Shown here piece by piece: positions 10,690 to 37,147 of a stretch of DNA of 64,000 bases. Positions within the stretch are counted from its first letter, which is position 1. Each line of letters opens with the position of its first letter. Origin of the DNA: Antitrichia curtipendula (taxonomy: Eukaryota; Streptophyta; Bryopsida; Hypnales; Leucodontaceae); the NCBI GenBank assembly GCA_951230915.1, contig OX579636.1:35213567-35277566 (forward strand). The letters run 5' to 3'. The notes under the pieces are model-generated. The model made no database searches. It saw nothing but the letters and a program-made list of their open reading frames with translations, and was not told where the DNA came from. The position numbers were made by a program, and so were the translations under genes.

Positions 10690-10900
10690 AATGGTCCCTG
10701 GTATCTTGATAGTGGGGCCACTAGCCATATAGCATCAGATGCTCGGAAATTAGATCGTCCCCCAAGTTCCTCTGGAATAGAGATCCATGAAATCAAAACG
10801 GAAGGGGGAGAGTCATCCTGTAAAAGGCTCCAGTCCCGCCACTGTCTAGACTGCAAACGGCACAATAAAGTTAAAAACCGTTTCTTATGTCCCTAGTATG
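10690..10900 (+). pseudogene. copia protease region, frameshifted
   Basis: The frame continuous with gag encodes WYLDSGATSHI, with the aspartic protease D-S-G triad at 10708-10716. Downstream, the expected 'V.YVP...NL.SVG' block is split over different frames: there is a frameshift near 10815 and another at the nine-A run near 10899-10907. An active protease could not be made from this copy. Confidence 0.8.
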
Positions 10901-11033
10901 AAAAAAAAATCTCATCTCAGTAGGAGCAATAGCGGACTCAGGAAATCAAGTAGTATTTACAAGTAAACACTGTTGGGTTCTCGACAAAAAGGGAAACACT
11001 GTAGCCTTTGGTCAGAGAGACCAATCAAACGGA

Positions 11034-11740
11034 TTGTACGCATTCCAACGTCCAATAATGGCCCTTGCAGCCAAGCATAAGGAGATAGCAATGCTGTGGC
11101 ACCGGCGACTCAGCCATCTAAGCTACGCTGGAGTTAATTTCTTATCCAAGACCAATAAAGTCACCAGACTTCCCAAGATCGCACTAGAGCACCAAGTCTG
11201 CACCAGTTGTATCTCTGGGCGGCAGCATTGAGAGCGCTTCCCTCGCTGATCCGACACTAAGGCCCAATATCCAAGTCAAAAAATACACTTTGATGTCATG
11301 GGTCCAATGCAGTAGATGTCACTAGGTGGCTCCAGATACGCCCTTGTATTTACAGATGACTATTCTTGTAAAAGTTGGGTTTATTTTTTAAAACACAAAA
11401 GCAAAACGGTAGACAAGTTTCTGATTTTCAAGAAACAGATCAAGAATGAAACTGGAAACCGCATCTAGATACTTTGCTCAGATCGGGGAGGCGAGTACAC
11501 ATCTACAGAGTTCTTAGATATCTGTAGAACGAGTGGCATAAAACGTGAGCTCACCCAAGCGCATACACCTCAACAGAATGGTACATCTGAAAGACAAAAT
11601 CGCACAATTATGGAGAGAGCTCGTAGCATCTCCCATGACTGCAACTTAGTACCAACTTTCTTATGGACGGAAGTTGTATCCCATGCAACGTACCTTGTCA
11701 ACAAAAGTCCAACTCAAACAAACAACGGGGAAACTCCTAA
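11034..11740 (+). pseudogene. copia integrase, several stops
   Basis: The frame gives the HHCC zinc domain (WHRRLSHLSYAG...VCTSC, 11097-11214). The core follows with DDE residues visible in HFDVMGP (about 11288), CSDRGGEYTS (about 11477) and QNGTSERQNRT (about 11575). In-frame stops occur at 11229, about 11247, about 11313 and about 11466, each explainable by a single C-to-T or G-to-A transition. The integrase C-terminal part runs on into the open frame that starts at 11610. Confidence 0.88.
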
Positions 11741-12551
11741 AGCTCGCTACACATGTATGACACCTGATGTCACCAATCTCAAAAAATTTGGCTGCATTGC
11801 GCATGCACACATTCCAAAAGAAAACTGTCGGAAGCTGGATAGCAAGTCTATGCAATGTCTATTTCTTGGTCTCGACAACGAAACCAAAGCATATAGATTG
11901 CTCGATCGTAGCAGGCAAAAGATACTAATAAGTTGTGACGTAGTCTTGAATGAGAACCTCGTAGGATACCATCACTTAGAACCTGCTAATCTCAACTCCA
12001 GTCATCTTATCTTCCCAGAGCCTAGCACCGATGATTGCTCAAGTCAGGTTAGCTTAGACCCTGAGATAATCTCAAAACCTGCCCCACAATACCCAGATTT
12101 ATCAAGCCCAGATAGTGATCAACATTTTATCTTCAATCGAATATCTTTAGACTCATCACCCCACAAGGAGCCCACCCTCTCAGAAGGTAGCACCAATAGC
12201 ACCAGGTCATCACAAACCCACCTTCAGAACCTTGAATCCAATCCTCCGATGTCTGTCGAAGCTACAGAATCTTCTACCCCACCTCATGATCAACACCTGC
12301 AAACAAAAACACTCAAGAAAACCAAAATTCCTCTTCCCGCAAATCGTCAAGTCAGCCCATCAGCTCGCCGCTATCCTACCCGCACGAGAGCTCCTTCCTC
12401 TCGCCTGAAGGATTTCTGGTCTCTCTTATCTGAAGTCATAGACGAGCCGATCAACTTCAAAGAGGCCAACGGTCAGAAGGAATGGAGAACAGCTATTGAA
12501 AATGAAGTCACATCGATTCTGAAGAACAAAACATGGGACATAGTTGATTGA
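11610..12551 (+). pseudogene. copia pol, integrase C terminus and IN-RT linker (open 313-codon piece)
   Basis: This is the longest open piece of the damaged pol gene. It begins in the last part of the integrase core (MERARSIS...), includes the 'KKFGCIAHAHIP' and 'KCLFLGLD'-like block typical of the copia GKGY-side region, and then a Ser/Pro-rich linker. It ends at the start of the RT domain, where TGA (12549-12551) replaces a sense codon. The same frame continues downstream, so this is not an independent gene. Confidence 0.88.
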
Positions 12552-12559
12552 CCCAACGA

Positions 12560-13223
12560 CAAAACTCCAATTACAGCAAAATGGATGTTCCAAGCCAAAC
12601 GGAATATCGATGGAACAATAAACAAGTTCAAGGCTCGAATTGTAGCCCGGGGATTTCAATAGAAGGAAGGCATTGACTATCATGAAGTTTTTGCTCCTAT
12701 TTTATGATGGAAAACAATATTGGTTATTCTCGCTCTTGCTGCACAGCACAACTAGGCACTGTCACAAATGGACGTGATCACAGCATTTTTGAATGGAACC
12801 ATCAACGAAGACATATTAATGGAGATACCAGAAGGCTTCCCATGTGCAGGTGATTCAACCAAGGTATGCAGAATCAACCGAGCCTTGTATGGCTTAAAGC
12901 AAGCCCCCAAAACCTGGTATGATTGCATCGACAAATGGATTCAACAACAAGGTTTGACGCGAAGCACCAGCAATCCAAATCTCTACTTCAAGAAAACAGA
13001 CGGTAAACTCATCATCCTATTACTTTATGTTGATGACCTCTTTATCACAGGGGACGACATTGAAGGAATTGCCAACCTTAAGCAAAAGTTACGATCTGAA
13101 TTTGAAATGAAGGACTTGGGTGAAGCAAGCAACTACCTTGGAGTTGAGATCAATCGCACAACTCAAGGCATCTTTATCAATCAACGTGGATACATCAAAA
13201 AATTACTTGAGAGGTTCAATCTG
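12560..13223 (+). pseudogene. copia reverse transcriptase, several stops
   Basis: Same frame as the integrase piece. It shows TAKWMFQAKRN, KARIVARGFQ, SQMDVITAFLNG and the RT active site LLLYVDDLFITGDD, with YVDD at 13026-13037, then YLGVEINR. Stops lie near 12660, 12705, 12753 and 13224, all compatible with C-to-T or G-to-A transitions from Arg, Gln or Trp codons. The 152-codon open piece 12768-13226 covers the palm. Confidence 0.9.
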
Positions 13224-13339
13224 TAAGGCTGTAATCCAAGCAAACTACCAATCGACCCCAAACTACAGCTACAAAAGAACACATGCACAACTAAGATTGA
13301 TTCGGAATTGTACAGATCTCTGGTTGGATCCTTGCTCTA

Positions 13340-13983
13340 TCTCTCACACTCGCCCCGACATTTGCTACGTTGTTAGCAGCATCTCTCGATACATGCAAGA
13401 ACCTGAAGAAGATCACTTTAAGGCAGTAAAGAGGATATTGTGCTACCTGAGCGGTACTGCTGACTACGACTTGCTTTCGTCCTTTGACAGCAACAACACT
13501 CTTCACTCCTACGCCGATGCAAACTGGGGACGAGATATCGACACACGCAAATCCATATCCGGCATACTACATCAATTTGGAAATTCAAGTATTGGCTGGA
13601 GCAGTAAAATGCAACCAATTGTCTCCCTCTCAACTACTGAAGCAGAATATTGAGTTCTCACGGACGCAGCCAAGGATATTGTTCACTTGCGAAGATTCTT
13701 CCAAAAACTAGGGTTCAACATGGATGCTCCAACAACACTACTTAGTGACAATCAATCCTGCATCAGATTAGTAGAAAACCCCGTCTTAAATGCTAGAACT
13801 AAACACATAGAAATTCATCACCATTTTATTCAAGATACTGCAAAAGCAGGAGAGATACAGGTAGGCTACATCCCCGCCGAAGACCAACTAGCTGACTTTC
13901 TCACAAAACCTCTAGCTCTTAGTAACTTTCACGCTAACAAGCGTCAGGTTGGCATTCTCTCTAAGGCCGAAATTTTGACCTAA
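13340..13983 (+). pseudogene. copia RNase H, frameshifted with one stop
   Basis: After a frameshift near 13351 the frame reads HTRPDICYVVSSISRYM, HSYADANWG and SLSTTEAEY. After a TGA at 13651 it continues with LLSDNQSCIRL, KHIEIHHHFI and QLADFLTKPL. These are the standard blocks of copia RNase H, including the D-E-D residues. The coding part ends at 13983, about 610 bp before the 3' LTR. Confidence 0.9.
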
Positions 13984-14596
13984 CCCATGCTGGTGTCTGC
14001 CAATTATCTATCCACAATGCTCTCTTTGTCATCCTATGCTTAAAGTCTGGAGCTCTAGGGTTTCTCCGTGACTCTCTGTTATCCCACCAATCCCTTAGAT
14101 TGTCTATCAGGTCCCTCCAACAGTCATCTATAGTACTCTCAGTTTCAACTCCCTGTACACTCGTCTCTCCCAAAACCCTAACAGACTTAGCAATACCTCC
14201 ATCTGTTTGAATCATAGCAGCCAAAATTTTGTTGTTCACCTCGCTTCCTTGAAATAGCCGCCACATGAACATACATGCATCTTGCAGCCAATCACAAACT
14301 CGCAGCATCGCCATAACCCCAAACCACAGCGACATTACAATCAACTAAACCTACCAAGGTACCACTTAGATTGATCAACATTACTACCCTTGACAAGATT
14401 CTAAGACTACTCAATCAAAGCCTCAGACTCCAACACAAACTTACCAAGGACATCTGATCTGCACCACTCCGGCACACCCGCAACACTTCCATCGGCAACT
14501 CAAATACTCGAGACATTTCTTCAAGCTTAGCAACAATTCAAGCCAGGGTGGATACCTTGGCGCTTATCTTCTGAAAGGTCTTTGCGCAAGGAAGGG
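13984..14596. other. Spacer between RNase H and 3' LTR, with an antisense open frame
   Basis: No copia domain is expected or seen here. On the minus strand 13961-14344 is open for 127 codons (start MIVMSLWFGV), longer than most chance frames in this window. It overlaps the end of RNase H. Antisense frames in this position have been reported for some plant LTR elements, but I recognise no domain, and chance is possible. Confidence 0.4.
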
Positions 14597-14873
14597 TGTT
14601 GGCGTTTTCTACTCTTCAGACCTCTCTCATCCATGCCCTATCATTCAACCAACGAAAAACACAACTGTTAGTCTACCAACAACAAACTCATTACAGTGTA
14701 CATATTACTGTTATGTAGTAACAGTTTTGCTTAGTGGTAATTAAGTGATCCAAGTAGTGGGCCTCAGCACAAGCATGTATATATACTGCCCACTGGCTTT
14801 CTTAATACAAGTCTTCTAATTACCTACTGTTCATATGTATGCATGTCTGTCTTTCAAAGTTCTTACTGCAACA
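14597..14873 (+). repeat. 3' LTR of the copia element
   Basis: 277 bp, preceded by the polypurine tract AAGGAAGGG and followed by the target duplication GGATT. Confidence 0.93.
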
Positions 14874-20667: not shown

Positions 20668-20678
20668 GATGCACCTTC
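20668..20678 (+). repeat. Left target-site duplication of the 16.5-kb MULE
   Basis: GATGCACCTTC occurs here and again at 37137-37147, just outside the inverted repeats. A length of 9-11 bp is what Mutator-family transposases generate. Confidence 0.8.
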
Positions 20679-20727
20679 AACGACGCTAGGGTCCGAGCGT
20701 GGAGCGGTGAGCTTGTGAGCTGTGAGC
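20679..20727 (+). repeat. Left terminal inverted repeat of the MULE
   Basis: It contains GCTAG, then CGAGCGTGGAGCGGTGAGC and further GTGAGC copies; two more copies of GAGCGGTGAGC-like sequence follow just inside. The match to the right end is about 40 bp with scattered differences. Clustered GTGAGC words are candidate transposase-binding sites. Confidence 0.72.
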
Positions 20728-21218
20728 ATATAACTTGCGAGCGGTGAGCTTGAAATAGCCTTTTCTTGGAAAATTTAGGCTCAGATTTTTTAGGAGTAAA
20801 GAATCTGTCCAAAAATTTAACAAAAATTCACGATTTACAATTCACATTGGTACCTATAACCGCGGCTCCTATAACCGTGGGTGAAGGTGAAGGGTGGTTT
20901 TTTGGAGGCAAATAAAACTCTTGGGTATGCATTTCAGATTACGGTGATTTGCAGTAAAGACCTTCTGAAAGAGCATCTTGTCTCTATAAATATCAAAGAT
21001 TCATGTAATTTCACTAGAAATTATTCCACCGAAAATTGGGTGGAATAGAAATGTGTGACTCAGAGAAGATGAAAAGTAGACCCAAAAAATGGTAGAAAAT
21101 ATTGGATGTACTTCCAAAACAGTCAGTTTTTATAAATGAGGACTATGACATCATAATTTCACCTGTAGCACATGTTCAGGGTTCAAACATGAAAATACTA
21201 CCCTCCAAGAAATTACTC
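20728..21218. other. Left subterminal region of the MULE
   Basis: Holds the inner inverted repeat CCTATAACCGTGGGT (20868-20882), preceded by a near-duplicate 'cctataaccgcgg'. It presumably carries the 3' untranslated and polyadenylation part of the minus-strand transposase gene. There is no other gene. Confidence 0.55.
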
Positions 21219-24200
21219 CTATTTTGCAATCAAAATGATCCCAGCTCGAACTAGAAGTAGCTTCAACTCATTAAAGCTATAACTTGGTGCATGAATGAAC
21301 TTGTCATCATGAATGTCCATTTTGCAAAAGTACCTATACAAATAGTATAAGTGCTTACAATTGACGTATTGTGCTCGGCCTCCAATAGCAGATACCACCA
21401 TATTGACAAAATCAGGACATGTGCATGAAGGGAATGTACCCACAGTAACTCGATACACATTTTGCTTGGGCTCCACTCCGGTCTGCAGTACCACAATTGC
21501 ACCAAGTGCAGGAAGAGGGACAAGGGTCACTCCTAGAATTTCCCCTTTAATATTTCGAGCACTCTCCCACTTATTTCGATGCTCAACAGTTGAAGGATTT
21601 GCAAGTCTTTTAATCGTTCGGTTGTTCCTCACGGTTGGATGTGCATCTGGATTTGGTGGACATGGTTGGGTGAAAAAGACCGGCTCAAAATTTTTTGACA
21701 TGGCAAAAAGGTCCTTAGGCGACAAGGTAGGCCGTTCTTGAAGACAAAAACCGGCATGCTGTAATAGTAAAGTTTCTTCGCGACTCAAATTTGTCCCTGC
21801 CAATTTTGGCCAAACTTCATGTACCTCAGGCCTATCAATGATCCACTTTCGTTTTGTACCTTTCACACAGCGTTCAATATCATCCCAGCAAAACCAAAAA
21901 TCCACCACCACTGGGCGCTTAGTTCCATACTCTTCTTTCCTACCACGATATGTAGGAGCAGGGGTTCCCTTTCCACCCTTCGCAATTCTTGAGGTACACT
22001 TGATGTTTGATGTTTGCTGCTGAGTCCAACATTTTGCATTTGACTTGTGGCTGATTCTAGCAATGTGCCACTTGGATGTGTCGCAGTCACTTTCGCATGC
22101 TACTATCACGTACTTTGAATTATTGACTTCACTACAATTTAAGGTGCCTTGCATTGATTCCTCTACCACCTTTGTAGACCTGGTTTTGACTCGAGGTTGC
22201 GAGAAGTTTACTTTGTCTGGTCTATGTGAATCTCCTGCATCACCAATAGGAACATCGAGGCTCCTCTTTGTGCTCCCAAATATTTCTTCTCCTTCTAGAT
22301 GTGGTACTCGAGATCCCACGCCATGACCTTCCGGCAATAAATTCAATGCCTCTGCTATTTTTTTGGGACACCCAGTGCGCCTAGCTACTCTCAACTTCAA
22401 CTCACTCTTAGATGGTCCTGACCCAGATGTATGCCCTCTAAGGTAAGCTCGGTAGTTTGTCATTTGCATCCAAGCCCGAATACTGTCATCACAAGTGGCG
22501 TCGAATAAACTGTTTCCTTTCTTCCCCAACATTTGAAGCCACTTGTTATGTACAGTTTCGGACAAATTGCAAGAAGGCATGTCTGCCATCTCTTGTAAAG
22601 TAAGACCCTAAAATGCAACCATCACCAGATGCAATTAAGATAAATCTCAAAATATACCATGCCATTTATATTTGTAATCGCTTTATAAATTGGCAAGAAT
22701 GAAAATATTCTATCAACTCTACAAATGTACTATTGAAAGAAAATAAAGAAAGACTTCATTAAAATTTGTTTTTTTCAACTACTACAAAATAAAAACAAGA
22801 AGTTGAAAACATAGTACAATCATCCATACATGGAAAAATTTCTACAGTAGACCCTAATACTCAAATTCTATTTCAACAAATACAAGGCGATTGAATTCGT
22901 CGGGTTTAACAGTTTAAAAAAAAAATCCACTATGCAAAATCAAAACTCTTTCATTGAAATTTGAAGCTTTAGGGTTCTCAACAATTTCCGAAATGCAAGC
23001 TTCTAGGATGTGAGTGTTTAAAATCATATTACATTTTTTTTTATAACAATCATATTACATTTAGATCCGTCGGATCCGACGGATGCATACTTTATTGGAA
23101 CAAATATTTTTATTCAAAATCTTCTGAAATTTATACACTTCACGTACAACGTTAAAAAAAATCTCTATCAAAACATTTAACTGAAAAGAATAAGTAGTAA
23201 TTCCAAAATAATCTTCATGGATATAGTTCAAATTTATAGATGCCTACTTCACTGAAAATAGAAAAAAAAGTGCACACCAAATAAGATTAACATACCATTG
23301 TCATGAAACCTCCCCATTGTAAATAACGAAAATGCCAAAATGCTAGCCAATGCTCCAAATGATGAAGTGCGTCCTCGGTTGTTGCTCCAGATGATAGCCA
23401 CCATGATCGGATTGCAAGATAGCGAACCTCCGCTTCATCCAAAGTCTTGGATTCTTTATATTGCTTGCATAATGCAATGTGTTGTTGTTGTAATGCTGGC
23501 TTGATGTGTTTCTGGGTGTGCTTCATAAGAGAATTACTCCAATGCAATAAACATGACCTCTCCCGATTTGTCATGACATCATCTGCAGAACCACTACCAT
23601 ATACAATGCGAATTGCATTCCAATTGGCCATTGCACTATCCGCCATGAATCCCTTAAAATTTGGATTGGGTACTCCATGTTTCTCCATCACAGCATTCAA
23701 GGACCTCCAAAATTGTACTTGAATCTCCGTATCTTCTGATTGCATGTCACAAATTGCAATGGTCATAACCTTCTTGTTCTGCGAGTCATACACGTGGCAT
23801 GCCATGGTGGTCCAGTCCTTCACGCGCTTCACGTGGTCGAACATCATCCACGCATTCTCTAGATCACCTTGTGGTTGCATCCGCTTTACCAAGTTCACTC
23901 CACTTCCAGGCCCCTCCGTGAGCATCTTAAAGAGATAGACTTTTTCTTTGCCTTGGCCTGGGAAGACACTGTCATGTATGAACTCGAACTTCGATTCCTT
24001 CTTCATGGCCATAATGTTGTCAATGATCCCTCCTTGATTGTTGGAGCGGAAAGAAGAGATAATATTCCGTATACTAGGACTACTTAGCGATTGAAAGCGC
24101 TCCATGACTTCTTCCATTTCATCTCCCTTTAAGATCTTCTTCTCTCCTTCTCCATGGTGAAAAAGGTGGTTCGTAAGGAAGTCTTTGCTAGCAGATAGGG

Positions 24201-25458
24201 CTATGGCAGAGTTCGTGGCCGATGGGGTTTTAGCCACTTGTTCTGCTATGAGTTTAGTAATCTCTTTTGCGGAATCTCTATACACGCCTTTTGCTACTGG
24301 ACGGGAGTGATTTCCTAGGTGAATTGCTGCTCTAGTCATATTAGGGTTATCAGTATAGCAGTAGTACATTCTTGCATCACAGGACCTAAGGCAGGTAGGT
24401 ATTGTTTTGCAGACTTTGCAGAGAAGTTTGCAAGTTTGTGGTGGCACAACTCCTACGATAAAAAGGAATACTGTAGACCCTATCCATTCTGTTTCATTTC
24501 GCCTAGAAGTCCTAGACAAGTACTCGCAGGTAGCATTTTCACAAACAAGGTGGCCAGCACAGAACGACTTACGGAACTTAAGATTATCAGAGTTGTGGAT
24601 GTTTGTTGTCACTAGCTTGCACCACGCATGTCCATCGTGGCGCTTTTCCATTCCCTCCAAGTTCTTTGCTGCAGATGAAGAAGAAGAGGCTCGACATGGC
24701 GGCAATTCGAAGATGATGTCTCCGTCATAAGTAGGTGGCAAATACTCCACTTGGTGGTGCGTTACACCGCTCATGTTTAATGTAGAAAGTTCGTTTCGGG
24801 AACGGTGAAGACCAGAAAGACCCTTCAAGCATATCATTATACTTGTTGAAGTGGTTGGACTCAGACCTAAATCTTGTTGTGAAAAGATAGGTTGCTCATA
24901 AGGACTAGTAGATGTATTATGTAGTGATTGTCCTAGTCTAGTGTCAGTAGACTCAATTTTGACTATGGAAGAGTAAGGTGAAAGGGGCAAGGAAGGGGAC
25001 TCGCCTTCTGAATCAGTAGAGAGTTCTACAATAGTCCCTAATATCTGTGTCTTTGCTTGCGACAAAATTTCTGGTTTTTGTCCAAACACTGGAAAACATC
25101 CTGTAGGTGTAGTCGGGTTGGTGGCTTTAGGTACACAAGGTCTATTCACTGTAGAATTATTGGACTCATGACTTGCTATCTCAGTGGTCAAAGCTAGCAT
25201 AGAAAGAGGAAGACCGTAAGCTCTATAGTTTCCAAGACCTAGATACCAACAGTGACCTTCATCGGAGAGAGATTTTGGAACTGGTATTGACTGAAGTAAT
25301 TCATTGGAAGCAGAACAACGCTCTTCCTCAACATAGATAGAAGACTGTGCAAATTTAAATCGAACATGGAGCAAGTGGCTGGAAACAGTCGCCCAACCGT
25401 CTACATCAAGTGGAAACACAAGAGGTACTTCGTGACCATCTACCCGAATGCTTGCCAT
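21219..25458 (-). CDS. MULE-type transposase with SWIM zinc finger (two exons)
   Basis: Exon 1 runs from ATG at 25458 to 23296 (721 codons) and ends at ATG|GTATGT. Exon 2 runs 22607-21219 after a TTTTAG acceptor; both are phase 0 and together give 1183 residues. Residues 300-384 hold Cys/His clusters ending H-L-G-N-H, reminiscent of the WRKY/GCM-like zinc domains of many MULE transposases. The RNase H-fold core lies around 535-710, with candidate acids D541 (FDHVKR) and D607 (FMADSAMANW), a conserved E575 region, and C636-x2-H639 (CLLHW). The C-terminal SWIM finger is C1116-x-C1118...C1138-x-H1140. It should cut and join the element ends in the nucleus. There are no internal stops, so this copy may be functional. 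The first 260 residues are unrecognised. The family is inferred from motifs. Confidence 0.82.
22608..23295 (-). other. Transposase intron, carrying a perfect 20-bp palindrome
   Basis: 688-bp AT-rich intron with GT-AG ends on the minus strand. At 23065-23084 it contains a perfect 20-bp palindrome centred on TCGGATCCGA, much more GC-rich than its surroundings. Related palindromes occur elsewhere only inside this element. Confidence 0.7.
23065..23084. promoter_or_regulatory. Perfect palindrome with TCGGATCCGA core (site 1)
   Basis: All 20 bp are self-complementary, with GATC at the centre and CCGTCGGATCCGACGG as the inner 16 bp. It is probably a protein-binding or modification site of the element; the function is inferred. 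Confidence 0.6.
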
Positions 25459-26272
25459 GTTGCTCTCAAAACAAAATTAGAAAGATACAAACATACAAAG
25501 AACTCTCTGTAGTTGAGGATCAAATGTAGGACTCATATTAGGATGTCTAAGGTCCGTTGATGAATAATAAATGATCAAACATGGACTCAGTGAATTTCAA
25601 ATTGTTTATTTACAAATCAAAAACGTCGGCGCATATGGGTCTAGGTGTATAGGGGATTAGGCTACGATATAATTTTTGGCTTGCCGTCATATTTGGAAAA
25701 AAAATAATGAGTGCAATGGCACCCCTATACTTTTTATAATATAAAGAGGACAGTGCTAGTGCCGTCATTCTTCCAAGGGTTTTGGTCCATTCTAGAAAAT
25801 AAATTACCTTGCCTCTTTCACTTCTATTAGTATCCCACACGTTTGCAAATAGGACATTGTCAGTGCTAGGACTATCATTTTTTAAAATAAAAGAATAAGG
25901 GTAGTAACGGAATTACCTACTCAAATTAATTTAGCAAAGCTTCGTAATTGAATGTGTGAGGAATCCTTAGGCATAATTTTTTATTTGCATTGCGGCCCCC
26001 CAAAAAACGGCTCGTTCAAACTTCGATGTATACCAAAATCTAAGGAATCTGACATTGGCGGCATAGAGTACCTTGGGCAGTGTGAGCTTGAAGTGCAAAT
26101 AAATGCCGGCACCGAATTCAGAACTTATGAGACACCAATGCATTTGAGATGGAGCGGTTTGGGTGATGTATAAAGGAAGCCATTGAGGTGGGGAGCTCTC
26201 ATTTCACAACCTCCCTTGTATTGTGGGCGACGGTGGTCCTTGGGTTCAATGTTGTAGCTTTTCTATTAGGTC
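25459..26272. promoter_or_regulatory. Divergent intergenic region between transposase and cargo genes
   Basis: It separates the minus-strand transposase start from the plus-strand block. A TATAAAGG box (26169-26176) lies about 100 bp upstream of the plus-strand ATG at 26273 and points in that direction. No clear TATA box was seen for the transposase. A 76-codon minus-strand open frame (25610-25840) lacks any motif, and I do not call it. Confidence 0.45.
26169..26176 (+). promoter_or_regulatory. Candidate TATA box of the plus-strand gene
   Basis: TATAAAGG in a locally GC-richer setting, 97 bp before the ATG at 26273, a normal spacing for TATA, start site and short leader. Confidence 0.4.
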
Positions 26273-26581
26273 ATGCGCTTGGACAGTTTGAGTGAATCAT
26301 TAGACATTCAAGAGCACAAAAAAGGTCGTAGAAAACGTAGGCCGTTGTATTTCTCTTCTCATAAGTCTTTACAGAGAGCAAGAATGGTACGCTCCAAGAA
26401 GACAGGAAACAAGAGAGTTTTAGGTGACAATAGTCAGTCACAGAAGTCTCAGTCCTCTGAGGGAGGAGATGGAGAGCAGCACGAAGTTGGTGATGTCCAC
26501 CGGCGAGAAGGAGAGCAAGACCAGAACCCGAAAGCATTACAAGCGGAAGAAGAAGTTTCAATGTCCCTACAGCCATCGAAT
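26273..26581 (+). CDS. Probable first coding exon of the cargo gene (basic N terminus)
   Basis: The ATG at 26273 opens 103 codons ending in AAT|GTAAGT at 26581/26582, a near-perfect donor in phase 0. The peptide has a nuclear-localisation-like cluster, KKGRRKRR, followed by a Ser/Gln/Glu-rich tail. The next exon of the plus-strand gene begins at 28493 directly after an AG acceptor (CTTCATGCAG) and is also phase 0, so joining them keeps the frame and gives a 1400-codon gene. The alternative is that this exon is non-coding leader and translation starts at 28493. An antisense 157-codon frame across this exon is taken as a shadow. Confidence 0.5.
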
Positions 26582-28492
26582 GTAAGTTTGTAGTTTGAAT
26601 TCTTTGAAAAATAGATACTTTTTCAATTTGCAGTTCCGAGTACTTTGAATTTGTCGAGTTTACGAAGTCAATTCTTGGCTGGACTGTGTTCATTGCTAAG
26701 AAGTAAGAAAGGTTGGTAGATAAGGGAGGCAGGACTAGGATCAAGGCTCAGAAAGGCAGTTAGGAGAGGCAAGACTAGGATGAAGGCTAAGGAAGGCAGT
26801 AGGAGTTTTGTATGAAATGTTGGTATACATCCAAGAGTCCATCTTCATGTTGAAGGTTATGTTCGATGAATTCTTGACAAACAAATTTTGCTAAGAAGGA
26901 TTATAGTCATTAGGTTCAGTTTAAGTGCAAGTTCTCAAGTGGGTACCAGAACACTAAGAGTCCAAAGAGAGTGAGCTTGTCATTGTTATTGTGGAGAGCC
27001 ACAAACCTTAACTGAGGACTTACTAATGAATTTGCAATAGAGTATGAGAAATACTTGTAATGAAATGAATTTGGCAATATCAATTTAATCAATACTGAAG
27101 AAAGGTCAATTTACAATTTTGACTTTATACTGCGATGAAATGCATGATTAGGTAATCCTAACTAATGGCTCAATATTGGAATAGTGCAATGCATGAGATG
27201 CAGTATTCCAATGTCATCACGTACTCCTTGTAAGGTTGAATATTTGTATATTTGTATTTATTATTTGGTGAACGTTTAGATCATTTGTCTTTGGATTATC
27301 CCCTCAAAATAATGAATTATTAAAATCATGCTGATGAGATCTAAAATGAGTAGAAGGTTCTCAAATGGAACGGGTTCTAAAATGGTGCCCTATCAACTTC
27401 AAAATTTTATAACAAATTCAAATAACCTCCAAAAAATATGACACGAGTTGAGTTAGATTGGAAATTCTTCTTGTCTAAGAAAATTAATTTACTAAAAAAT
27501 ATTGATAGATGTTTTACCTCCCCAAAATTCAAGTGAGTGGTGCAACAAGAATTTTCAGAAACATGAATGACTGGTTTAATACCTAAAATTAGTTTGTGAA
27601 GTTGAGGAAAATTGGACTGCCCTTCAATCCGGATCGCACGTTTGATCGAATGGCTGGAATTCCTGGAAATTTTGGATCTTGTTCTATAGGTGATTGAAAA
27701 ATAACTTGGAAAATATAGGAACTGCTTGAGGTTGAACCACTTTTGGGAGCCATAAATTCGAGAGCTAAATCTTTGATGTCGATCTGGTTGCAAAATTAAA
27801 AATTGCTTGACAAATGTACGAGAATTCTTGTGAATTTTTGCGTAAGATCCATGCATATACAAACTTCATCATTGCTAAGTGAGATATTTGAAATTCCATA
27901 TCCACACGTACATGCACCATTGGATGTACCTAAGAGATTCATTTGGAAAATTCGGAATCAATTTTTGACTTTCTCCTGTTGGCCGAGGGAAGCCAAGCAG
28001 ACAGCGCGCCGAACTCACTTTACGAGATAGGAAATCTGAGGAAGAGCCCGTACAGGCCAATCCAAGTTCTGGATCAGGATGAGCTTGTAACCGCGGTACC
28101 TGAACCATGAGTCCACCTTGCATCCTTCCGTTCTTTCATTTTCTTGCAAACCTCAACGAGCAATCTTGTTCTAGAGACTGTAGTCGTGGCGGCCCTTCAT
28201 AATCACAACAACCGTTGTAGAGTGCGTGTATGCATGGTTTCTTGTTCTTCCTTTACTCCTCCCGGGAATCCAGATGGTGTCCTTTTCTTAAGCTTCGCTT
28301 GTTGTACACAACTTAGATCTTCCCCGAAGTTGATTTTTGAGAATCTTGCTGTTCAGTTTGCGCCATCTTGGGTGTTTGCGGATCCTGGTACTGTACATTG
28401 TGCGAGTTGTTGCATTAGTTTTTGTAGTGTCAATCTACTGCAACGTGAGATTTTGACATTACTCTTTTAAATCTTCTTGTACCTTCATGCAG
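26582..28492 (+). other. Probable long intron or leader of the cargo gene
   Basis: AT-rich, with a 40-bp near-perfect tandem duplication at 26726-26804 (unit begins GAGGCAGGACTAGGAT). A block at about 27360-27560 is related to the TA-flanked MITE at 41243-41559, read in reverse complement. The last 350 bp are less AT-rich and could be leader sequence or a second promoter for the ATG at 28493. Confidence 0.45.
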
Positions 28493-31400
28493 ATGGATCG
28501 AAGTACTCGAAGTAGAGCTAGAGCGGTTGCGGGAGCAGGAGGAAGGCCCAATGAGAATGTGAACTCTCAACAGGTTTCTTTTTTCAATCTCATACCTTAG
28601 TTGTGTACCAAATTTGTTTTACTCAACTTGATCTAGATTTGAAACAAGAAAAAGACACAAAATCTAGGGGTACCACGAGGCAAGCCAGAAATGCCCGTCG
28701 GCTCCGACCTGTTCTTGCAGGGGTGCTCGTGGTCCCCCCGAATTCCCATTTCTATTTTTTCATTCGAGGATGACGTTTCCAAGATTTGAGCTCGGATCCA
28801 ACGTATACAGCGGCCATCCATCCATGCATCGAGCGGATCGTGTCTTGAAAGCAAAGCAGTTAAAAAAAAACTGGAAATCCGAGGGTACCTTGCGGGGGTC
28901 GGGAAACTCCCATCGGATCCGACGTGGGTTTCCTTAGAGACTCGATGTACCCCTGCATTCACCCTTTTTTTTTTTATTTTTTCAACGTTTTTGGAACCTA
29001 GAGTTTGCAGCAGTCTGAGGATGTAGATCCGAGAGTCCGACAGCTTGCTTGTGCAAACGAGAGATCAAGAAGAATACTTTTGTTTCACCTCCCCAACTGC
29101 AAGGACAGTCTTACTGAGATTCGGAACCAGGTGTAGGTTTCTGCATGGACATTTACGGTTCAATTGTGATTCGATTACTCAGCTTGCATGCCGAAGCACC
29201 CTAGCCACACTTGCATTTTGGCAGCATGTCGATTAAGATTTTAGGTTCTGTGATTCAAATTCTAGATTCCACGTCGATTCATTTTGTAAGCACGTCGATC
29301 CATTCTGTAAGCATTCATTCTGTAACCAGTCATTCCAAGTTGATCCATTTTGTAAGCACGTTGATTTAGATTCTAGATTGAAGGAATTTGTGAGCATGAT
29401 TTTCGTTCATCTGATTCCAGGTTGAGAATTAGTGTCAAGAACCCAGGTTGAATCCGGTTGTGCCCAGCTTGAATCCGGTCGTACCCAGCTTGAATCCGGT
29501 TGTGAGTAATAGAAATCCAGTCTTGCGGTGGAGGGATTAAATTAAGTTCTTGCGGTGCATGGCCAATTTAGATGTTGGAGCGATTTCCCAGCTTCTTTCA
29601 TCACTTTGCAGGGAATGATTCAGTTCATCTAAGATCAGATCAATACATCAGTTTGTTCGAAAATTTGTTGCTCTTTACTGTAGCTTGGATGTACCTATCG
29701 AATTCTCATTTAGACTTTGAACAGGTACCAACATTTATGTCTCAATCTGGCCTTAACGTAAAATATACAATATAATATCGTTGCCATGATAGCTGAGGTA
29801 CTCCGTCTCCAATTTGATACCAGAACATGCGGCTATCAGTTGATCAGATTTTTGACCACTTTTTTAGTTTGATCAAGGATCAACTTGATTTGGGATCGAA
29901 TGATCCATCTGTGACTTGGTTCGGTAGAAAGTTCTTTTTATCTATGCTTTCGTTCAGCTTGTAAGAAATAGTTGTAATCTATTGCGTGCATGCCGTAAAA
30001 AAATGAGAAATTGGGGGGTACCTTGAGGTGCACCAAAAACTCCCTTCGGATCCGACGTGGGTTTTCAAGGTGCCCCAATGTACCCCCTGATTTCTCTTCC
30101 TATTTTTCATTTTTTTTGAAAGAACTTGCAATTGAATGTTTGCAGCAGTCTTGCAAGCTAAGGATCAAGCATTGCTTATGGAATACCCGAGGATGTTAAT
30201 CATAGAGTCTATATGCTTATTTGTCTATTAGCACAATTTGGAGTCAGTAAGCACGTCAAATTAGATTTTGTAGTTTGTATATAGAACCTCGAAGGAGCAG
30301 TCTAAAAGCACGATCAGGCAGGTTATTAGAATTGCCCAAAGTCAATAATTCACAAATTTGGACTTGCTGTGGAATGATTCAAATGCAGTCTTGCGATGCA
30401 TGGTCGTTCTTAGATGTGGAGTGATTTATTTGGTTAATTTCAGAAATAGTAATTTGTTTGGTTTTATTTCTTAGATGTTTTGTTTGGTTAATTTCTTAGT
30501 TCATAATTTTTTTGGTCTATTTTTTAGATCTTCATTTGTTTGGTAATTTGTTTGGTCAATTTCTTAGATCTTAATTTGTTTGGTAATTTTTTTTGTTAAT
30601 TTCATAGATGTGGAGTGATTTGTTTGATTTTGCAAGACCTGTTCAATTATGATTTTTCCATTTTGAAAGGAACATGTACCAAGATTATTTCATTTAGATA
30701 TTTTTAAATCTAATTTTGGAGGTCCTTTGAGTGCATGCCGAAGACCCCGTCGGATCCGACGTAGGTTCCAACATGCACTCAAGGGACCCCAAAAAATGCT
30801 TATTTTGAAAATATGTAAATTTCCTTGAAGCCATTCTCTTTGGTCCGCAATTGTTCAGGATGACGTGAGCTTTTTCTCAGCCATAGAGTTGGTATTTATT
30901 TGTTTTATTTTTTTGATAGAGAGAATTAAATGAGTAATCCACAACAAGTGGTTTTAAATTGTTTAAAGGTTTTTTGAACTTTAGATTAATTTTTGAAAAT
31001 GGTTTGTTTTCGGTTGCTATTTTATCCCCACATCATTTATAATTTAATGGTCTTTCGTTGATAAAAACTTTTGACTTATGAAATGAATGTAGTGTATCAT
31101 TGAGATATATGCGTAATCAAAACTTAAAGGGTCCCCCTACAAATTTATTTCTAATTTAATGTCTGATGATTTCTACAGAGTGGTCCAGCACGAGGCAAAC
31201 GCCTAAAACTAACAACTTCTTCCGAGGATCCAACAATGGAGGAATTTACTCCAGCTCCCAAGATTGGAGGGCCTTCAAAGCAAAACACTTTGTTAGAAGA
31301 AGGCGGGTCACATGCAAGTGACGATGAAGGGGCTGAAGAGAACTTGGTGAGTTTTGACGATGTAATGGACGCAGCTGATAGGGCAATAGATGCATTTGAA

Positions 31401-34400
31401 ACAAGTGTCCAGAGTGGTAATGGGCTCCAGCGCTTCGTATTCTCAACTTATAGTTCAGAGGAGGAGTTTCCGTACATGGAGCTTAAGAGCTCCACCAACA
31501 AAGGGCGTCTTCAGAGCTCGGATGCAGAGGAGAGTACCGGGTTTAGAGAGAGTTTCCAAGGGGCGGAAATCATTATCCTTAGCTCTGACGAGGATGATGA
31601 TGTCGTAATCTATGACTAGATTCGTGTACAAGTGATTTTATATAAATCATGTTTTCAGGATTTATCGGCATTTAGACTATTTTGATCTGACATTGTGCTT
31701 TTGAGTTTGACTACCAAATGACAGAATAATATGAATGTATAAATTTTTGTTCAATGTTTATCCGTGTATATGTTGCTATCATCTACATATTGCTTTACAA
31801 GCAAATTTGTATTTATTAAACTTAATGTTTTCTTTTCTAGATGGACATCACATCCGAAAAAATTATAGAAGAGGAGACCATCTTCGAGACTCCGGGCTCT
31901 CAAAAAGTTCAACAACCTGAAATTGAGCAAGTTTCTGACGGTGACAATGATGATGATGGAGAAGTTGGCGAGGAAGACTCAACAGATGTCATCCAAGAGC
32001 ATCCAGAGGAGAAGGTGATGACCGAGGATGAATTACGCAAAATCCAAAAGGGAGATACCGTCAATATTCTGGCCCACCTCCGTATGAAGCCGGAGGAGTC
32101 CTTCCGTATGCACATTCCACTGTGCAGATTGGTGACCATGCCCATGGTCCGACCAGCTCTCCTGTCTGATATATCAAAATTGGAGCAAGATTTTGCAGCC
32201 GGGGGCTACCTAGATGGTGCGGCAGTCTTCTATGTCTCCACAACAAACGAAGAGGGGAACACAGAAGAATTTACAGAGGTAGAGATGGAGAAATGGGACC
32301 CCATCTGGAGAGAGAAGAACCAGATCTTCTCTCAAAAGGTTGAGGGAAGGCAAGAGCTCCAATTTTTGAAGAAATTGAAGTTCTTCATTTGCGATGGAAA
32401 CCACAGACGGGTCGCATGGATGAATTTCATTGGAAAACATTCCAAGTGGCATTGCAATGTGGATTGTATAATCCTCGATACAAAAGGAAAAAATGAGATC
32501 GTCATGCAGGTCATGCATGATATAAACAAGTAAGTGAATTGGCCTTTTTTCTTTTCAAATGCAAGACTCAATCATTTCATTTTGAATACTTTGTTAGTTA
32601 TGATCTCAATCTTCAACTTTACCGCTAATCCAAATGTTTCGGTGACATGTAGGTCTGTGGAGGATTCTCACGTTAAGACAAACTTGGTACACACGTTGTT
32701 CCAAGTTCAAAAGTACGGAATGCTCCCAATCAATAAATTTGCAACTCTTTTGAGGCCTGCGGAAAGGAAGAGGTGCCTTGAGAACCCGGTGACAAAGAAA
32801 TGGTATTCAGTTCTGCCCGACATTTTCACGTCATTCATTTTTAGGGTAAGGACATTCCACACTCTTTGATTTCAAGAGTTTTACACATACCCAGTTTTCA
32901 TTGCACAGGTTTTTATATCTAATTTGATGGAGGACACTGTACAGCAAGAGATTTCTCAAGCAGCTGATTCGTCAGTTAGAAGATATCTAGAGGCTACGAG
33001 AGAGACTGGTAGTACACCAGAGGGAGCGGCCGAAGCAATGAGGGAAGGGGCCATGGAGAGAAAGAAGGCACTTACGTCAAAGATGTTTAAGCTCTTGGCC
33101 GTAGCAAACCCAGGCAACGGAATGGACTTCCTTAAAGAGGTGAATGTTTGAGAATCATGGTTTCTTGCTTCTTCTTATTCCACAAGAATCTATTACTTAT
33201 AAATTTTTCTTTCTTTGCAGGTGGAGAAGCATTGGGGAAACTATGAGGTGCCAGAAATGACGTTGGAGAAGCTACAAATGGTTGGAACCTCGAAAATGAC
33301 TGGTAAGCACAAAACCAACATTTTAAAGTGGTGGAACTCTTCGACACTTACTCGAGAAGCCCGAAAGTTGCCACCCAAACCAGTCTCGGAGATCCATCTT
33401 CCTCAATTCATAGTGAAGTGTACTTGATACACAGGGGTAAGTCCTTCTTCTCTTTTTCCTATTGACTTTAAACTACGGTAATGAAGAAACGGACAATGCG
33501 ATAATTTTCTTATGTTTTATTTTTTTTGTACTGCTTTACTATTTTGATTTTGTATCACTAATTTCAGATTGAAGATGCTGCGGTTGCGTTGTTCGAGAAA
33601 ATTGTCAAGGAGGACAATCTCACCATCAACTACAATACCCCTGACGAACCAGAGCAGCTACCGGAGTACATTGAAGGATGGCGGCAAAAAATTTGGGACC
33701 ACGGGTTTCTGAACTACTTGAAAGGAAACAACTATTTCAAGAAGGGAATGACCTTTGATACGTTCCCGGGCTCTGTGGCAGTGGTTCGGAGAGTACTCTA
33801 CCGGTATGCATTAAATTCTTTGAATACATTTTTTTTTCACAACTTAAAGTATTTTGGAACTTGTAATTTATAATAACTCAATATTTTTATTGTCTTCTCC
33901 TATTTTCTTGATGTAGTGAACTGAAGTTGAAGTGAAGTGTCATTTTGGTCTTTTTTTATTAAAAGTCTACTTAGTACGTTGTTTTTTAAATATGAAATTG
34001 GCTTATTTGCAGGTACTTTAAGCTAGAGCTAGAAGCGAAGGGGGCCATCACCAAATTGGATATCCCTCCTTTTCTTAGTGGCTTCCTTGATCGCAACTCT
34101 CCATCCTGCATGTTCAGCGCACACCAGTTGCGAACGTACACAACAGCTCATTTGAGTGGTGCGGGCTGGTACTTGGACTGCACTTTGGAGTTCACTCATC
34201 ACTCTGAAACGCAGCTTAGAAAATCCTTGGAGGGAAAAGGGATTGTGGATTTGGATCTCATTGATGAGTTCATCGGCATGGATGACGAAGCCAAGAGGAA
34301 GGCCATCAACAAGAGGGATGCAGTGGATCGCAAGAAAGAAGTGAAGAATCAGTTCGCACTCCAAAGAAAAGAAAAGAAAGAAGCGGAGAAAGCGACAAAG

Positions 34401-36472
34401 AAGGCTGAGAAGGACTTAGTGAAAGAGAAAGAAGAGAAGACTAAAAGCAAGGGCAAGAAAACGGTGGAAGAAGAAGGCCAAGTAGTGACTTCCTCCACTG
34501 TGGATCAAGCGGGTCAGACACAAGAGGGGGTGAAAAAGAAAATCACTTTGTCACAGCTCACGGAAGATGTAATCTCGCGCGTCACTCAAGCGTTGGTCCT
34601 CTCCGATGACGAGGTTCCCAAGACCGAGGATTTAATCCTCAATGTTTGCATTGAGGATATTGCAATGGACATGGAGAGCAAAAAAGCCAACGTCTTTGAT
34701 GAGGTCTTAAAGTACTTGAATAAGGTATAGTAGTTATCCTTTATAGATCAGTTTTCTGGTTTTTGTCAATGATATCATTTTTCTGTACTTGTGATGTATT
34801 GATGTTGTAGTACTATAGAAAAATTTAATGTTTGTGTACATTACATTTACCAATCCTTTTTACTTCATTAATTTGTTTTTCAAAGATGTCATGTGCACAA
34901 AGCACATTATAGTAATTTTGTCGAATTTAATGGAATTTTATAAAATGACTTTTTGTCTTCTGTACTTCTCTGTTCAAATTGTTTGCCTAAACCATTTGAA
35001 TTTTGGAGGATTCATTGGTTACGCAATGGTAGATAGATGAGCTTTATTAGTTTATTACTACATTGACATTGGATTGAATCAAAAAATTTCAGATGTCAGT
35101 TGGGAAGACCCGGGTGTTTGAAGGTGTAGCCAATGCAAGGGCTGGAGTGGACGTCATTTTCATCGATTGTCCTGAAAATTTGCCCGTACCGGGCATTTCA
35201 ACATCGCCGAAGGACGTGCCCAAGTGGAATGCAGATCCAGAGGCAGATGCTCTGCAATCTACCTGTGCGTTTGCTGTAGAGCATTTGCATGATGATGGAT
35301 GCATAGTTGTTTTTCACTCCTTTAGCGTTGCATCGAGGTCGGACATTGCTGGAGCTTGCGAGGTGTATGACTTAAAAAAGAAGAAAGATTGGCTCAGCAT
35401 GAATCGCATGCACCTCACGTCGGCATTAGATATCACAAAGACGGTATGCTAATTTGTAAATTTGAGTTCCAGTTTTTAAATTGTGTCTACACATAATTAT
35501 CTTCACTCTAATGTTTTTTGTTCTCTTCAAATTGCAGACACAGAAGTTTGGAGTGACAGTTCTTGTGAAGGACCTTCAATCAGTAGGCAAATCAAAATTT
35601 GCCTTCAAACGTACGCAAATGATGAAGAAGGCTGGGGTAGATGTAGAAATCGATGATATGCTCATGAACTATATGCATGAAGATGACCTCTCTATGAATG
35701 GAAACAAGCCATGGAGAGGCGCACGCGAGAAGGATCCAAGGTTCTTCACTCTCTTCCTCGAGGCCACAAGCAATGAAGGCGATATCATTATGGACTGTTC
35801 AGCCTCTACTGGTTAGTGTTCTAATTTTGTAAATTTGAATTGTATTCAATTGTACAAATTGATAGCCTAATCTAACTGAAATACATTCTTTTACTGTTGT
35901 AGGTGCTTGCATTAAGGCTTGCAGAGGCACCGGGCGCAATATATTGGCTTTGGAAGGGAACAAGGACATTTTCAACGCCCTCTTGAAGCCAATGACAAAG
36001 TCTACACCGTCTGTGGTAGCAAGAACAACGCCAACAACAACAGCTGACCTCCCAATCAATCCAGAGGATGTGCCCATCGTACCTCGCAAGTTTGTTCGAA
36101 AAGGAAAATCTAGTAAGTAAGTCCCAACCTCTTTCATTCTTTGTTTGTTTTCTTCCTCTTGCATTTTCAAACACTCATCCATTGTCTTCAATTTCTTTCA
36201 GGAGTGACAGGTTGATGTTGGCAGAGGCCATAGAGAAGAAGAAATGGCTTATCGTTAGTCCAGAAAAGCCTTTTCATCTTCCACAATATGCAGAGCAAAT
36301 GGCAAGCGCTTTTGCAACTTGTGGTTCCTCTAAACCAAAACGACGCAAGAACACTTATGCCCTAAATGTCTTGCAATATGTAGATGTTTCTGCATCTGAG
36401 GGTAGGGAGTCCTCAGAGTCATCTACTGAGTCAGATTCTGTGATTGAATCAACCAATGACTTGGATTCTTGA
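28493..36472 (+). CDS. ParB/Srx-like plus DNA methyltransferase-like fusion, 12 exons
   Basis: Exons are 28493-28573, 31179-31604, 31841-32529, 32653-32845, 32909-33139, 33221-33436, 33568-33803, 34013-34724, 35093-35443, 35538-35811, 35903-36116 and 36202-36472. All introns are GT-AG, all phases agree and the total is 3894 nt (1297 codons plus stop). Numbered from 28493, an acidic region (about 40-230) precedes a ParB/sulfiredoxin-like domain: IPLCRL...VRPALL, then DGNHRR at 354-359. The middle is largely unrecognised, followed by a Lys/Glu coiled coil around residues 770-850. The C terminus resembles a permuted N4/N6 DNA methyltransferase: FIDCPEN (motif IV position, D953) precedes IIMDCSASTG (motif I position, D1131) and NILALEGN. 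A TGA at 33425-33427 interrupts exon 6. ParB folds bind DNA or cut it; methylase activity is uncertain because DPPY is replaced by DCPE. Confidence 0.7.
28666..28740. repeat. Intronic hairpin 1 (variant core TCGGCTCCGA)
   Basis: Left arm GGGGTACCACGAGG (from 28667) pairs with right arm TGCTCGTGGTCCCCCC (28724-28739). The centre, GTCGGCTCCGAC (28697-28708), is the family core with one change, so GATC is lost here. Confidence 0.65.
28881..28954. repeat. Intronic hairpin 2 (core TCGGATCCGA)
   Basis: Left arm GAGGGTACCTTGC pairs with right arm CGATGTACCCCT. Inner arms GGGAAACTCCC and GTGGGTTTCC also pair in part. The core is at 28913-28922. Confidence 0.65.
29442..29504 (+). repeat. Three tandem 21-bp units in the intron
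   Basis: The unit is CCCAGCTTGAATCCGGTTGTG. Three units are head to tail, the first with AGGTTG and the second with TCGTA as differences. Looser relatives occur just before. The role is unknown. Confidence 0.8.
30014..30088. repeat. Intronic hairpin 3 (core TCGGATCCGA)
   Basis: Left arm GGGGGTACCTTGAGGTGCACC pairs, with a few mismatches and a small bulge, with the arm AAGGTGCCCCAATGTACCCCC. The core is at 30046-30055, followed by CGTGGGTTTT as in hairpin 2. Confidence 0.7.
30714..30794. repeat. Intronic hairpin 4 (core CGTCGGATCCGACG)
   Basis: This is the best-paired of the four. TTTTGGAGGTCC...TTGAGTGCATG on the left matches CATGCACTCAAGGGACCCC and the A-run on the right. The 14-bp perfect core is at 30748-30761. 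Confidence 0.75.
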
Positions 36473-37077
36473 GATCGACGTATCTCTTGGATTGTAATAT
36501 TGTGTTTTGCTCTTTAATTGGATTGGATTTGTGTGTTTTATGGTTACTTCTAAGAGTCTCATCTTTGTCATTTTATATTTGAATTTTTTTTAACATTAGT
36601 ACCTCAAAAATCAATATTTACAATTCCGTCGGATCCGACGGAATCATAGGTATTGCTCAATATTTCTCACATTTATATTTTTTGAAGACAACTTTTTCTC
36701 ATCACCACTTATGGTCTATAATTCAACAACTCTCTTTAATCTTTTTTTTAATCTTTTATCTTCCATTTTCTCGATTTGTGGTTTTAAGCCATCATCTCTG
36801 TTATCCTATATTGTTCTTTTCATTAAAAAATTGCTCGATTTTTTTTTAAGTATAAAAGATTTAGTATTTCTAGCATAAAACTCTCCTAAATATTCAAGAA
36901 ATACTTTAGGTCTAGAAAATAGACCCTAAATGTCTACTCTATAATATACATTGTCCACGGTCATGGGTATTTGAGATAACAAAGAGAGGAAAAATCCAGG
37001 TAATTTATATATAATCCAAATGTTTAAACCCACGGTTATAGGTAGCCAGCTATAATTTTTATTATAAAAAAGTTCCT
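36473..37077. other. Right subterminal region of the MULE
   Basis: Holds the 3' end of the cargo gene, a 22-bp perfect palindrome (36623-36644) about 150 bp after the stop codon, and the inner inverted repeat (37028-37042). Otherwise AT-rich with no gene. Confidence 0.6.
36623..36644. promoter_or_regulatory. Perfect 22-bp palindrome with TCGGATCCGA core (site 6)
   Basis: It shares the inner CCGTCGGATCCGACGG with the palindrome in the transposase intron at 23065-23084. The two near-identical palindromes lie towards opposite ends of the element. It is a candidate binding or modification site. Confidence 0.6.
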
Positions 37078-37136
37078 GCTCACAGGCTCACAAGCTCACA
37101 GGCTCACCACTCCACGCTCGCCTGCTAGCAACCCTG
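37078..37136 (-). repeat. Right terminal inverted repeat of the MULE
   Basis: Four GCTCAC words at 7-8-bp spacing, then CACTCCACGCTCG and CTAGC, the inverse of the left end. The target duplication GATGCACCTTC follows. Confidence 0.72.
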
Positions 37137-37147
37137 GATGCACCTTC
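37137..37147 (+). repeat. Right target-site duplication of the MULE
   Basis: Identical 11-mer to 20668-20678. Confidence 0.8.

What the first reader, a model, noticed from the sequence alone, without database searches (positions are those of the whole stretch)
20679..37136. Giant MULE carrying a ParB-methyltransferase gene
A 16.5-kb unit with an 11-bp target duplication, terminal inverted repeats and an intact SWIM-type MULE transposase also carries a spliced 12-exon gene whose domains look like ParB/Srx plus a permuted DNA N4/N6-methyltransferase. That pairing is known from phages and prokaryotic mobile elements; as cargo of a plant-type DNA transposon it may be an undescribed architecture. 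The cargo is not a random host fragment, because it fills half the element and has a coherent exon structure.
Basis: partly seen in the sequence, partly recalled or inferred. Interest (0 to 1): 0.92.

Follow-up and report, generated by a model that had tools for sequence, protein, structure and literature searches.

The report
Two-gene plant transposon with palindrome sites
A plant genome, probably a moss, carries a large, recently active family of jumping genes that encode, besides their transposase, a bacterial-looking DNA-binding protein fused to a worn methyltransferase domain, and most listed copies of one striking DNA palindrome in that genome lie beside these elements.

Summary
Confirmed and enlarged. 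The 16.46-kb unit (20678-37136) is a real DNA transposon: 9 complete copies are 99.3-99.5% alike and carry both genes; 12 of 14 copies with both ends seen have 9-10-bp target duplications. The second gene is no random passenger: relatives keep it head-to-head with the transposase (109 of 150 listed, about 0.5 expected). It joins a ParB/sulfiredoxin-fold domain to a permuted N4/N6-methyltransferase lacking DPPY in 10 of 10 loci read, so probably no methylase. Such accessory genes are already reported in algal transposons of other superfamilies, so the pairing itself is not new. New here: non-coding palindromes, core GTCGGATCCGAC (379 in the genome, reversed control 3; 45 of 50 listed lie within 15 kb of element genes, 0.93 expected), mostly centring ~76-bp foldbacks whose arms change compensatorily with Watson-Crick pairs only. 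The 10-bp centre recurs beside the same gene in another eukaryote's contig. Best reading: an element-encoded factor acting on its own parS-like sites, comparable to VANC of Arabidopsis VANDALs. Binding is untested.

The parts
20678..37136 (.). complete transposon, 16459 bp
   Evidence: boundaries from 9 complete copies, 0.53-0.70% pairwise difference
20668..20677 (.). left target-site duplication GATGCACCTT
37137..37146 (.). right target-site duplication GATGCACCTT
20685..20727 (+). left terminal inverted repeat with GTGAGC units
   Evidence: local alignment of the ends; GTGAGC scan
37086..37129 (-). right terminal inverted repeat with GTGAGC units
23296..25458 (-). transposase exon 1: RNase H-like core; a GCM-like DNA-binding domain is only weakly supported
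21219..22607 (-). transposase exon 2 with stop, SWIM-like C-terminus
   Evidence: open frame joined in phase to exon 1; Pfam SWIM E 0.081, below cut-off
26384..31346 (+). tentative exons 1-4 of the second gene (26384-26581, 28493-28573, 29014-29130, 31179-31346)
   Evidence: splice-signal and frame fit only; no homologue support
31841..32845 (+). exons 5-6: ParB/Srx-fold domain with DGNHRR motif
   Evidence: 500 relatives at E<=1e-3, 120 listed; fold match to ParB on the homologue
32909..34724 (+). exons 7-10: middle region
   Evidence: aligned with the Ceratodon protein and family B
35093..36116 (+). exons 11-13: permuted N4/N6-methyltransferase-like domain; motif IV replaced by IDCPENLPVPG, motif I DCSASTG
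36202..36472 (+). exon 14, C-terminal tail
   Evidence: aligned in family B
23068..23081 (.). exact palindrome CGTCGGATCCGACG in the transposase intron; no foldback beyond the core (z -0.4)
28696..28709 (.). palindrome, 2 mismatches, tentative intron of second gene
28790..28803 (.). palindrome, 3 mismatches; weak, no good foldback
28911..28924 (.). palindrome, 1 mismatch, tentative intron; modest foldback (z -1.9)
30044..30057 (.). palindrome, 1 mismatch, tentative intron, ~90-nt foldback (z -6.2)
30748..30761 (.). exact palindrome 1.1 kb before the ParB exon, foldback (z -9.5)
36627..36640 (.). exact palindrome just 3' of the second gene, short foldback (z -3.8)

Best explanation
It is an autonomous two-gene transposon of the Mutator/IS256 kind. 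SHOWN: gene 1 is an RNase H-like transposase; gene 2, head-to-head with it, is a conserved second gene with a ParB/Srx-fold domain and a methyltransferase-like domain without the DPPY motif; many of the related element families carry several palindromic sites with a TCGGATCCGA centre in their non-coding DNA, mostly inside foldbacks, and the extended 12-bp core is largely confined to these elements. INFERRED: the gene-2 protein recognises these sites as a dimer, like ParB on parS, and may load and spread on the element; the degenerate methyltransferase domain serves as a binding or dimer module rather than a writer. INFERRED, less sure: the output is to keep the element's own chromatin open (anti-silencing), as VANC does for VANDAL elements, so that a burst like the one seen here can happen before host methylation closes the copies.
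Confidence: 0.5

Rival explanations
1. The palindromes are sites for the transposase or for host factors (enhancer, insulator, replication or excision aid), and the ParB-like protein does something else.
For: One recurring site lies about 0.56-0.61 kb from the transposase core, in the window inside the transposase intron; in family A one site lies about 0.5 kb from the right end.
Against: Contig L068 has three sites upstream of the ParB exon; I did not search its 4.7 kb for a transposase. Many listed sites are 1.45-2.6 kb before a ParB exon.
Confidence: 0.22
2. The foldbacks are tiny parasitic palindromes (MITE-like), or quasi-palindromes kept symmetric by template switching in replication, without function.
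For: Roughly constant length with conserved outer GGGG/CCCC ends looks MITE-like; template switching (recalled, not from a call) would give only Watson-Crick symmetry, as seen. Five of 50 listed 12-mers are not near a listed element gene.
Against: 45 of 50 are, at repeated positions across diverged families; an unchanged 10-bp centre would not follow from template switching alone.
Confidence: 0.15
3. The protein is an active adenine or cytosine N-methyltransferase that marks GATC inside the palindrome.
For: GATC lies at the dyad; Pfam N6_N4_Mtase 4.9e-07 on the homologue; best PDB sequence match a bacterial adenine methylase labelled DpnA, weak (E 0.053); the Ectocarpus relative is predicted to make 4mC or 6mA (PMC12477816).
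Against: DPPY replaced by D[CMV][PQ]E, or DTPF in Ceratodon, in 10 of 10 loci read; motif I is D-x-[STI]-A-[SA]-T-G in 9 of 10 and broken in the tenth (L046).
Confidence: 0.1
4. A captured passenger gene, carried by accident.
For: MULEs tend to acquire host gene fragments (PMC6446971, abstract start in a listing and passages).
Against: Conserved arrangement across families and purifying selection; the same kind of gene in algal transposons.
Confidence: 0.02

Closest known systems
ParB-methyltransferase accessory genes of algal transposons (Sola1-1_Ec32 of Ectocarpus, 21.5 kb, 1104-aa protein; similar in green and red algae)
   Same: same two domains, gene on the strand opposite the transposase, giant element (PMC12477816 passages; its references 50 and 51 not seen)
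   Different: the carrier here is of Mutator/IS256 type in a land plant; loss of DPPY and palindromic sites are not mentioned in the passages seen, and no word beginning with palindrom occurs in that paper's main text; sequences not compared
VANDAL elements with VANC (Arabidopsis MULEs)
   Same: MULE-type element with a second, sequence-specific gene family and short target motifs repeated in its own non-coding DNA (PMC5735166)
   Different: here the second protein has a ParB/Srx fold and a methyltransferase-like domain, and the candidate target is a palindrome mostly inside foldbacks; no activity data; VANC sequence not compared
Bacterial ParB-methylase fusions such as Bce_0392, and ParB/parS
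   Same: ParB domain fused to an adenine methylase, nicking activity reported (PMC5512222 passages); parS is palindromic (recalled)
   Different: here eukaryotic, spliced, in a transposon, DPPY lost, no ParA sought
Ceratodon purpureus M758_1G295400 (P0001)
   Same: same domain order, 31% identity over 92%
   Different: DTPF instead of DCPE; its genomic setting could not be read
IS256/Mutator transposases (ISCth4)
   Different: no Pfam MULE match at E<=1
MuDR of maize (recalled, not compared)
   Same: two genes
   Different: second gene not known to be of this kind (recalled)

Membership tests
Mutator-like element (MULE) | 9-11-bp target-site duplication | tested here: met
   12 of 14 copies with both ends seen have 9-10 bp; 2 (C6_16.2, C9_25.15) have none
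Mutator-like element (MULE) | terminal inverted repeats | tested here: met
   short, imperfect, 44 alignment columns
Mutator-like element (MULE) | transposase of the Mutator/IS256 fold | tested here: met
Mutator-like element (MULE) | Pfam MULE/SWIM domains by sequence | tested here: inconclusive
   no MULE model at E<=1; SWIM E 0.081 below cut-off
ParB/sulfiredoxin superfamily | ParB/Srx fold | tested here: met
ParB/parS partition system | palindromic binding site near the gene | tested here: inconclusive
   palindromes are there; binding not testable
ParB/parS partition system | ParA partner and CTP-dependent clamp | not tested
   no search for ParA; CTP binding needs the bench
N6/N4 DNA methyltransferase (beta class) | sequence relation to the family | tested here: met
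   Pfam PF01555 4.9e-07 for P0001; phrog_67 5.6e-06. The window's own exons alone gave no Pfam match
N6/N4 DNA methyltransferase (beta class) | [DNS]PP[YFW] catalytic motif (recalled) | tested here: not met
   10 of 10 loci lack it
VANDAL/VANC | second gene related to VANC | not tested
   no VANC sequence was compared
VANDAL/VANC | motif repeated in non-coding DNA of its own elements and rare elsewhere | tested here: met
VANDAL/VANC | loss of DNA methylation caused by the protein | not testable with these tools
   needs bisulfite or native sequencing
ParB-methyltransferase transposon accessory class (algae) | ParB-like plus N4/N6-methyltransferase gene opposite the transposase | tested here: met
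   arrangement and domains as reported for Sola1-1_Ec32; relation by sequence not tested

The most novel reading that the evidence does not exclude
A eukaryotic transposon has taken over a bacterial ParB-like switch: a ParB-fold protein loads at parS-like foldback palindromes, spreads along the element, and with its pseudo-methyltransferase domain shields the element from silencing or pairs its ends, the symmetry of the site being kept at DNA level (cruciform or dimer site).
Probability: 0.3. Interest if true: 0.95.

Novelty: new variant of a known kind. Interest (0 to 1): 0.82.

Why it matters
Accessory ParB-methyltransferase proteins of algal transposons were proposed to bind their own element, with no site named in what I saw; here a candidate site can be read from the genome, so the idea becomes testable with one protein and one oligonucleotide. 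If right, it would be a second, unrelated invention of what VANC does. It also shows a methyltransferase fold kept under selection without its catalytic motif inside a mobile element, and offers dozens of DNA palindromes in which compensatory change can be measured.

Tried and rejected
Captured passenger: disfavoured by pairing and selection. RNA hairpin: in the alignment of 38 sites Watson-Crick pairs rise (955 against 621 in shuffles) while G-U falls like A-C (73 against 125; 100 against 148), which speaks for symmetry at DNA level; no Rfam match in the element. IMG/VR: no relative by pattern scans with a transposase relative, the ParB-containing alignment and the transposase alignment. Phage records: two weak methylase-only matches. 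One genome-contig scan gave one locus, L068, filed as a cyanobacterial MAG, but with an intron at the same place, so taken as eukaryotic contamination. The AF2 model gave no usable methyltransferase part (pLDDT about 30). My first selection run read the transposase core out of frame; redone. The first pairing control used guessed lengths for four contigs; redone with printed lengths, except C218, for which a length was assumed. Ten paper searches of the open-licence PMC library turned up PMC12477816 as the one description that I saw of a ParB-methyltransferase gene in a eukaryotic transposon; I had passed over it and read its passages only on re-checking. Its sources (Iyer 2011; Petroll 2025) I did not see.

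Full report
WHAT IS THERE. The window lies in a 400-Mb genome (G000, 303 contigs; window C4:35213567-35277566). The host is probably a moss: the one protein that the full-length search found is from Ceratodon purpureus. That is inference; no host marker gene was tested. The element spans 20678-37136. Of 40 scored matches to its left 1.3 kb (599 first-look candidates), 16 are full-length at 99-100% and 24 are partial at 77-79%, from related families.

COPIES AND BOUNDARIES. I read 9 copies end to end (window plus 8): 16,415-16,463 bp counted from the second base, pairwise difference 0.53-0.70%, star-like, so one recent burst. All nine hold both genes. With five more copies read at both ends, 12 of 14 have a 9-10-bp duplication; C6_16.2 and C9_25.15 have none. 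The two remaining copies of the 16, a facing pair at C4:5.91-5.93 Mb with an assembly gap, were left out. Within the burst mutations look neutral: second gene 43 synonymous and 82 non-synonymous against 42.8 and 90.5 expected; transposase 21 and 90 against 30.9 and 80.7; a stop appears in the second gene in 3 of 9 and in the transposase in 4 of 9; 357 of 478 changes are C-to-T or G-to-A. These copies are decaying, as methylated, silenced copies would (inference).

THE METHYLTRANSFERASE IS DEGENERATE. In place of DPPY: DCPENLPVP in family A (window), family B, L042, L043 and L046; a changed DCQENLPV in L047; DMPEGLPVP in L044 and L045; DVPEDLPVP in L068; DTPF in P0001. That is 10 of 10 loci without the canonical motif, with a shared replacement in 9. 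Motif I is D-x-[STI]-A-[SA]-T-G in 9 of 10 and broken by a stop in L046, instead of DPFxGSG (canonical motifs recalled). I read this as a conserved non-catalytic or altered domain.

THE PAIR IS CONSERVED. The ParB exon has 196 matches in this genome (150 of 1806 first-look candidates scored, 150 rows listed) and the transposase core 150 (150 of 1428 scored). Among the listed 150 and 150, 109 transposases have a ParB exon divergent and upstream within 15 kb, 116 within 40 kb, 3 have one in any other arrangement; random placement gives 0.46, at most 5, or 0.51, at most 4, with corrected contig lengths. Lists are cut off, so true pairing may be higher. Between families A and B third codon positions carry most differences and dN is 0.16-0.35 for six exons of the second gene, dS saturated in five and 2.5 in one; transposase exon 2 dN 0.14, dS 1.1, core dN 0.115, dS 1.36.

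THE PALINDROMES. CGTCGGATCCGACG with up to 3 mismatches occurs 7 times in the window, all inside the element, none in an exon of my models; 0.15 expected. In the genome the 14-mer occurs 90 times against 1 for the reversed control; the 12-mer GTCGGATCCGAC 379 against 3; the 10-mer 619 against 338, so the enrichment rests on the longer words. Of the first 50 listed 12-mer sites (C1 and part of C2) 45 lie within 15 kb of a listed element gene, 0.93 expected, at most 6 in 1000 draws. Offsets repeat across families: +0.56 to +0.61 kb from the transposase core, -1.45 to -1.6, about -1.9 and about -2.5 kb before the ParB exon, +1.5 to +1.96 kb after it. The five others may lie beside unlisted copies or elsewhere. 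Family B has four 10-mer sites, family D six in 10 kb, three of them spaced 263 bp. Family L041 (ParB about 55%) has none in 10 kb. Of six stretches of 2.5-3 kb downstream of ParB in diverged families (L042-L047) only L042 has one; L044 and L045 began past the +1.5 to +1.96 kb zone and L047 midway, but L043 and L046 cover it and have none. The core belongs to many but not all families.

FOLDBACKS AND COVARIATION. Most sites are the centre of a ~76-90-nt imperfect palindrome. I tested 40 sites (25 from the stretches, chosen from the 50 listed, and those of families A, B and D): 34 fold far better than versions with mononucleotide-shuffled arms (z below -3), 6 do not (window 23068 and 28911, one L065 site, one family B site at -2.9, two tandem family D sites). 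An earlier, cruder test put 4 of 15 above the 99.9% null and 11 of 15 above the 95% null. On an alignment of 38 of these sites, 79.2% of cells pair against 59.6% in shuffles, 325 cells have compensatory changes against 148, covariation score 0.494 against 0.196, none of 500 shuffles as high; the number of pairs with any change on both sides does not differ (31 against 30.3). Sliding by one column drops pairing to 43-45%. The two sites left out (family D 5974 and 6237) are near copies of a third that was kept, but they also are two that do not fold. Related sites inflate such counts. Only Watson-Crick pairs are enriched; G-U is depleted like A-C. So symmetry seems kept at DNA level, either because it is recognised as a dyad or cruciform, or because replication keeps palindromes symmetric.

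ANOTHER ORGANISM. L068 is a 4.7-kb contig labelled Synechococcales MAG, the one relative among 46 pattern matches in the genome collection. It encodes the same protein (46% in the ParB domain) with an intron at the STG|A position seen here, so I take it as eukaryotic contamination. It holds three TCGGATCCGA sites upstream of the ParB exon, 0.003 expected, each a foldback, with flanks CTCGGATCCGAG. The 10-bp centre is thus shared beyond this genome while its flanks differ symmetrically; the three sites share flanking sequence, so they are not independent events.

PRIOR WORK. [quoted passage not shown] So this accessory class is known. What I did not see described there: a Mutator-type carrier in a land plant, the lost DPPY motif, and a candidate binding site.

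HOW IT MOST LIKELY WORKS. Shown: a two-gene element, conserved second gene, conserved sites. Inferred: the second protein binds the sites. The nearest mechanistic precedent is VANC, which binds a 9-base motif repeated in non-coding DNA of its own VANDAL elements and causes loss of their methylation (PMC5735166: abstract, introduction, section on motif binding). The bacterial precedent for the domain pairing is a ParB-adenine methylase, Bce_0392, with nicking activity (PMC5512222 passages). I rate site binding by the second protein about 0.5 and an anti-silencing output about 0.3.

LIMITS. No expression, methylation or binding data; gene model by eye; truncated lists; host not named; the Ceratodon locus and the algal elements not readable here.

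Noticed in passing
window 9279-14873: Looks like a Ty1/copia retrotransposon: 277-nt direct repeats 95% alike flank several broken gag/integrase/RT-like frames; named by eye, no domain search was run.
   Followed up: no
window 50827-52922: Two open frames that look like a peptide/nitrate (NPF/POT) transporter gene of the host; named by eye.
   Followed up: no
L013, L015 (C4:5.91-5.93 Mb): Two inverted copies of the element face each other, left ends about 20 kb apart, with a 200-N assembly gap and missing parts between: a joint or misassembled pair.
   Followed up: partly
L040 5974-6500: Family D carries three of its palindromes at a spacing of 263 bp with near-identical surroundings, a likely route of site multiplication.
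   Followed up: partly
L068: A contig filed under a cyanobacterial MAG encodes this intron-containing eukaryotic gene: probable contamination of the public record.
   Followed up: partly
L041 (C1:8804000-8813990): A diverged family with the same two genes has no TCGGATCCGA in 10 kb; it may use another target motif.
   Followed up: partly
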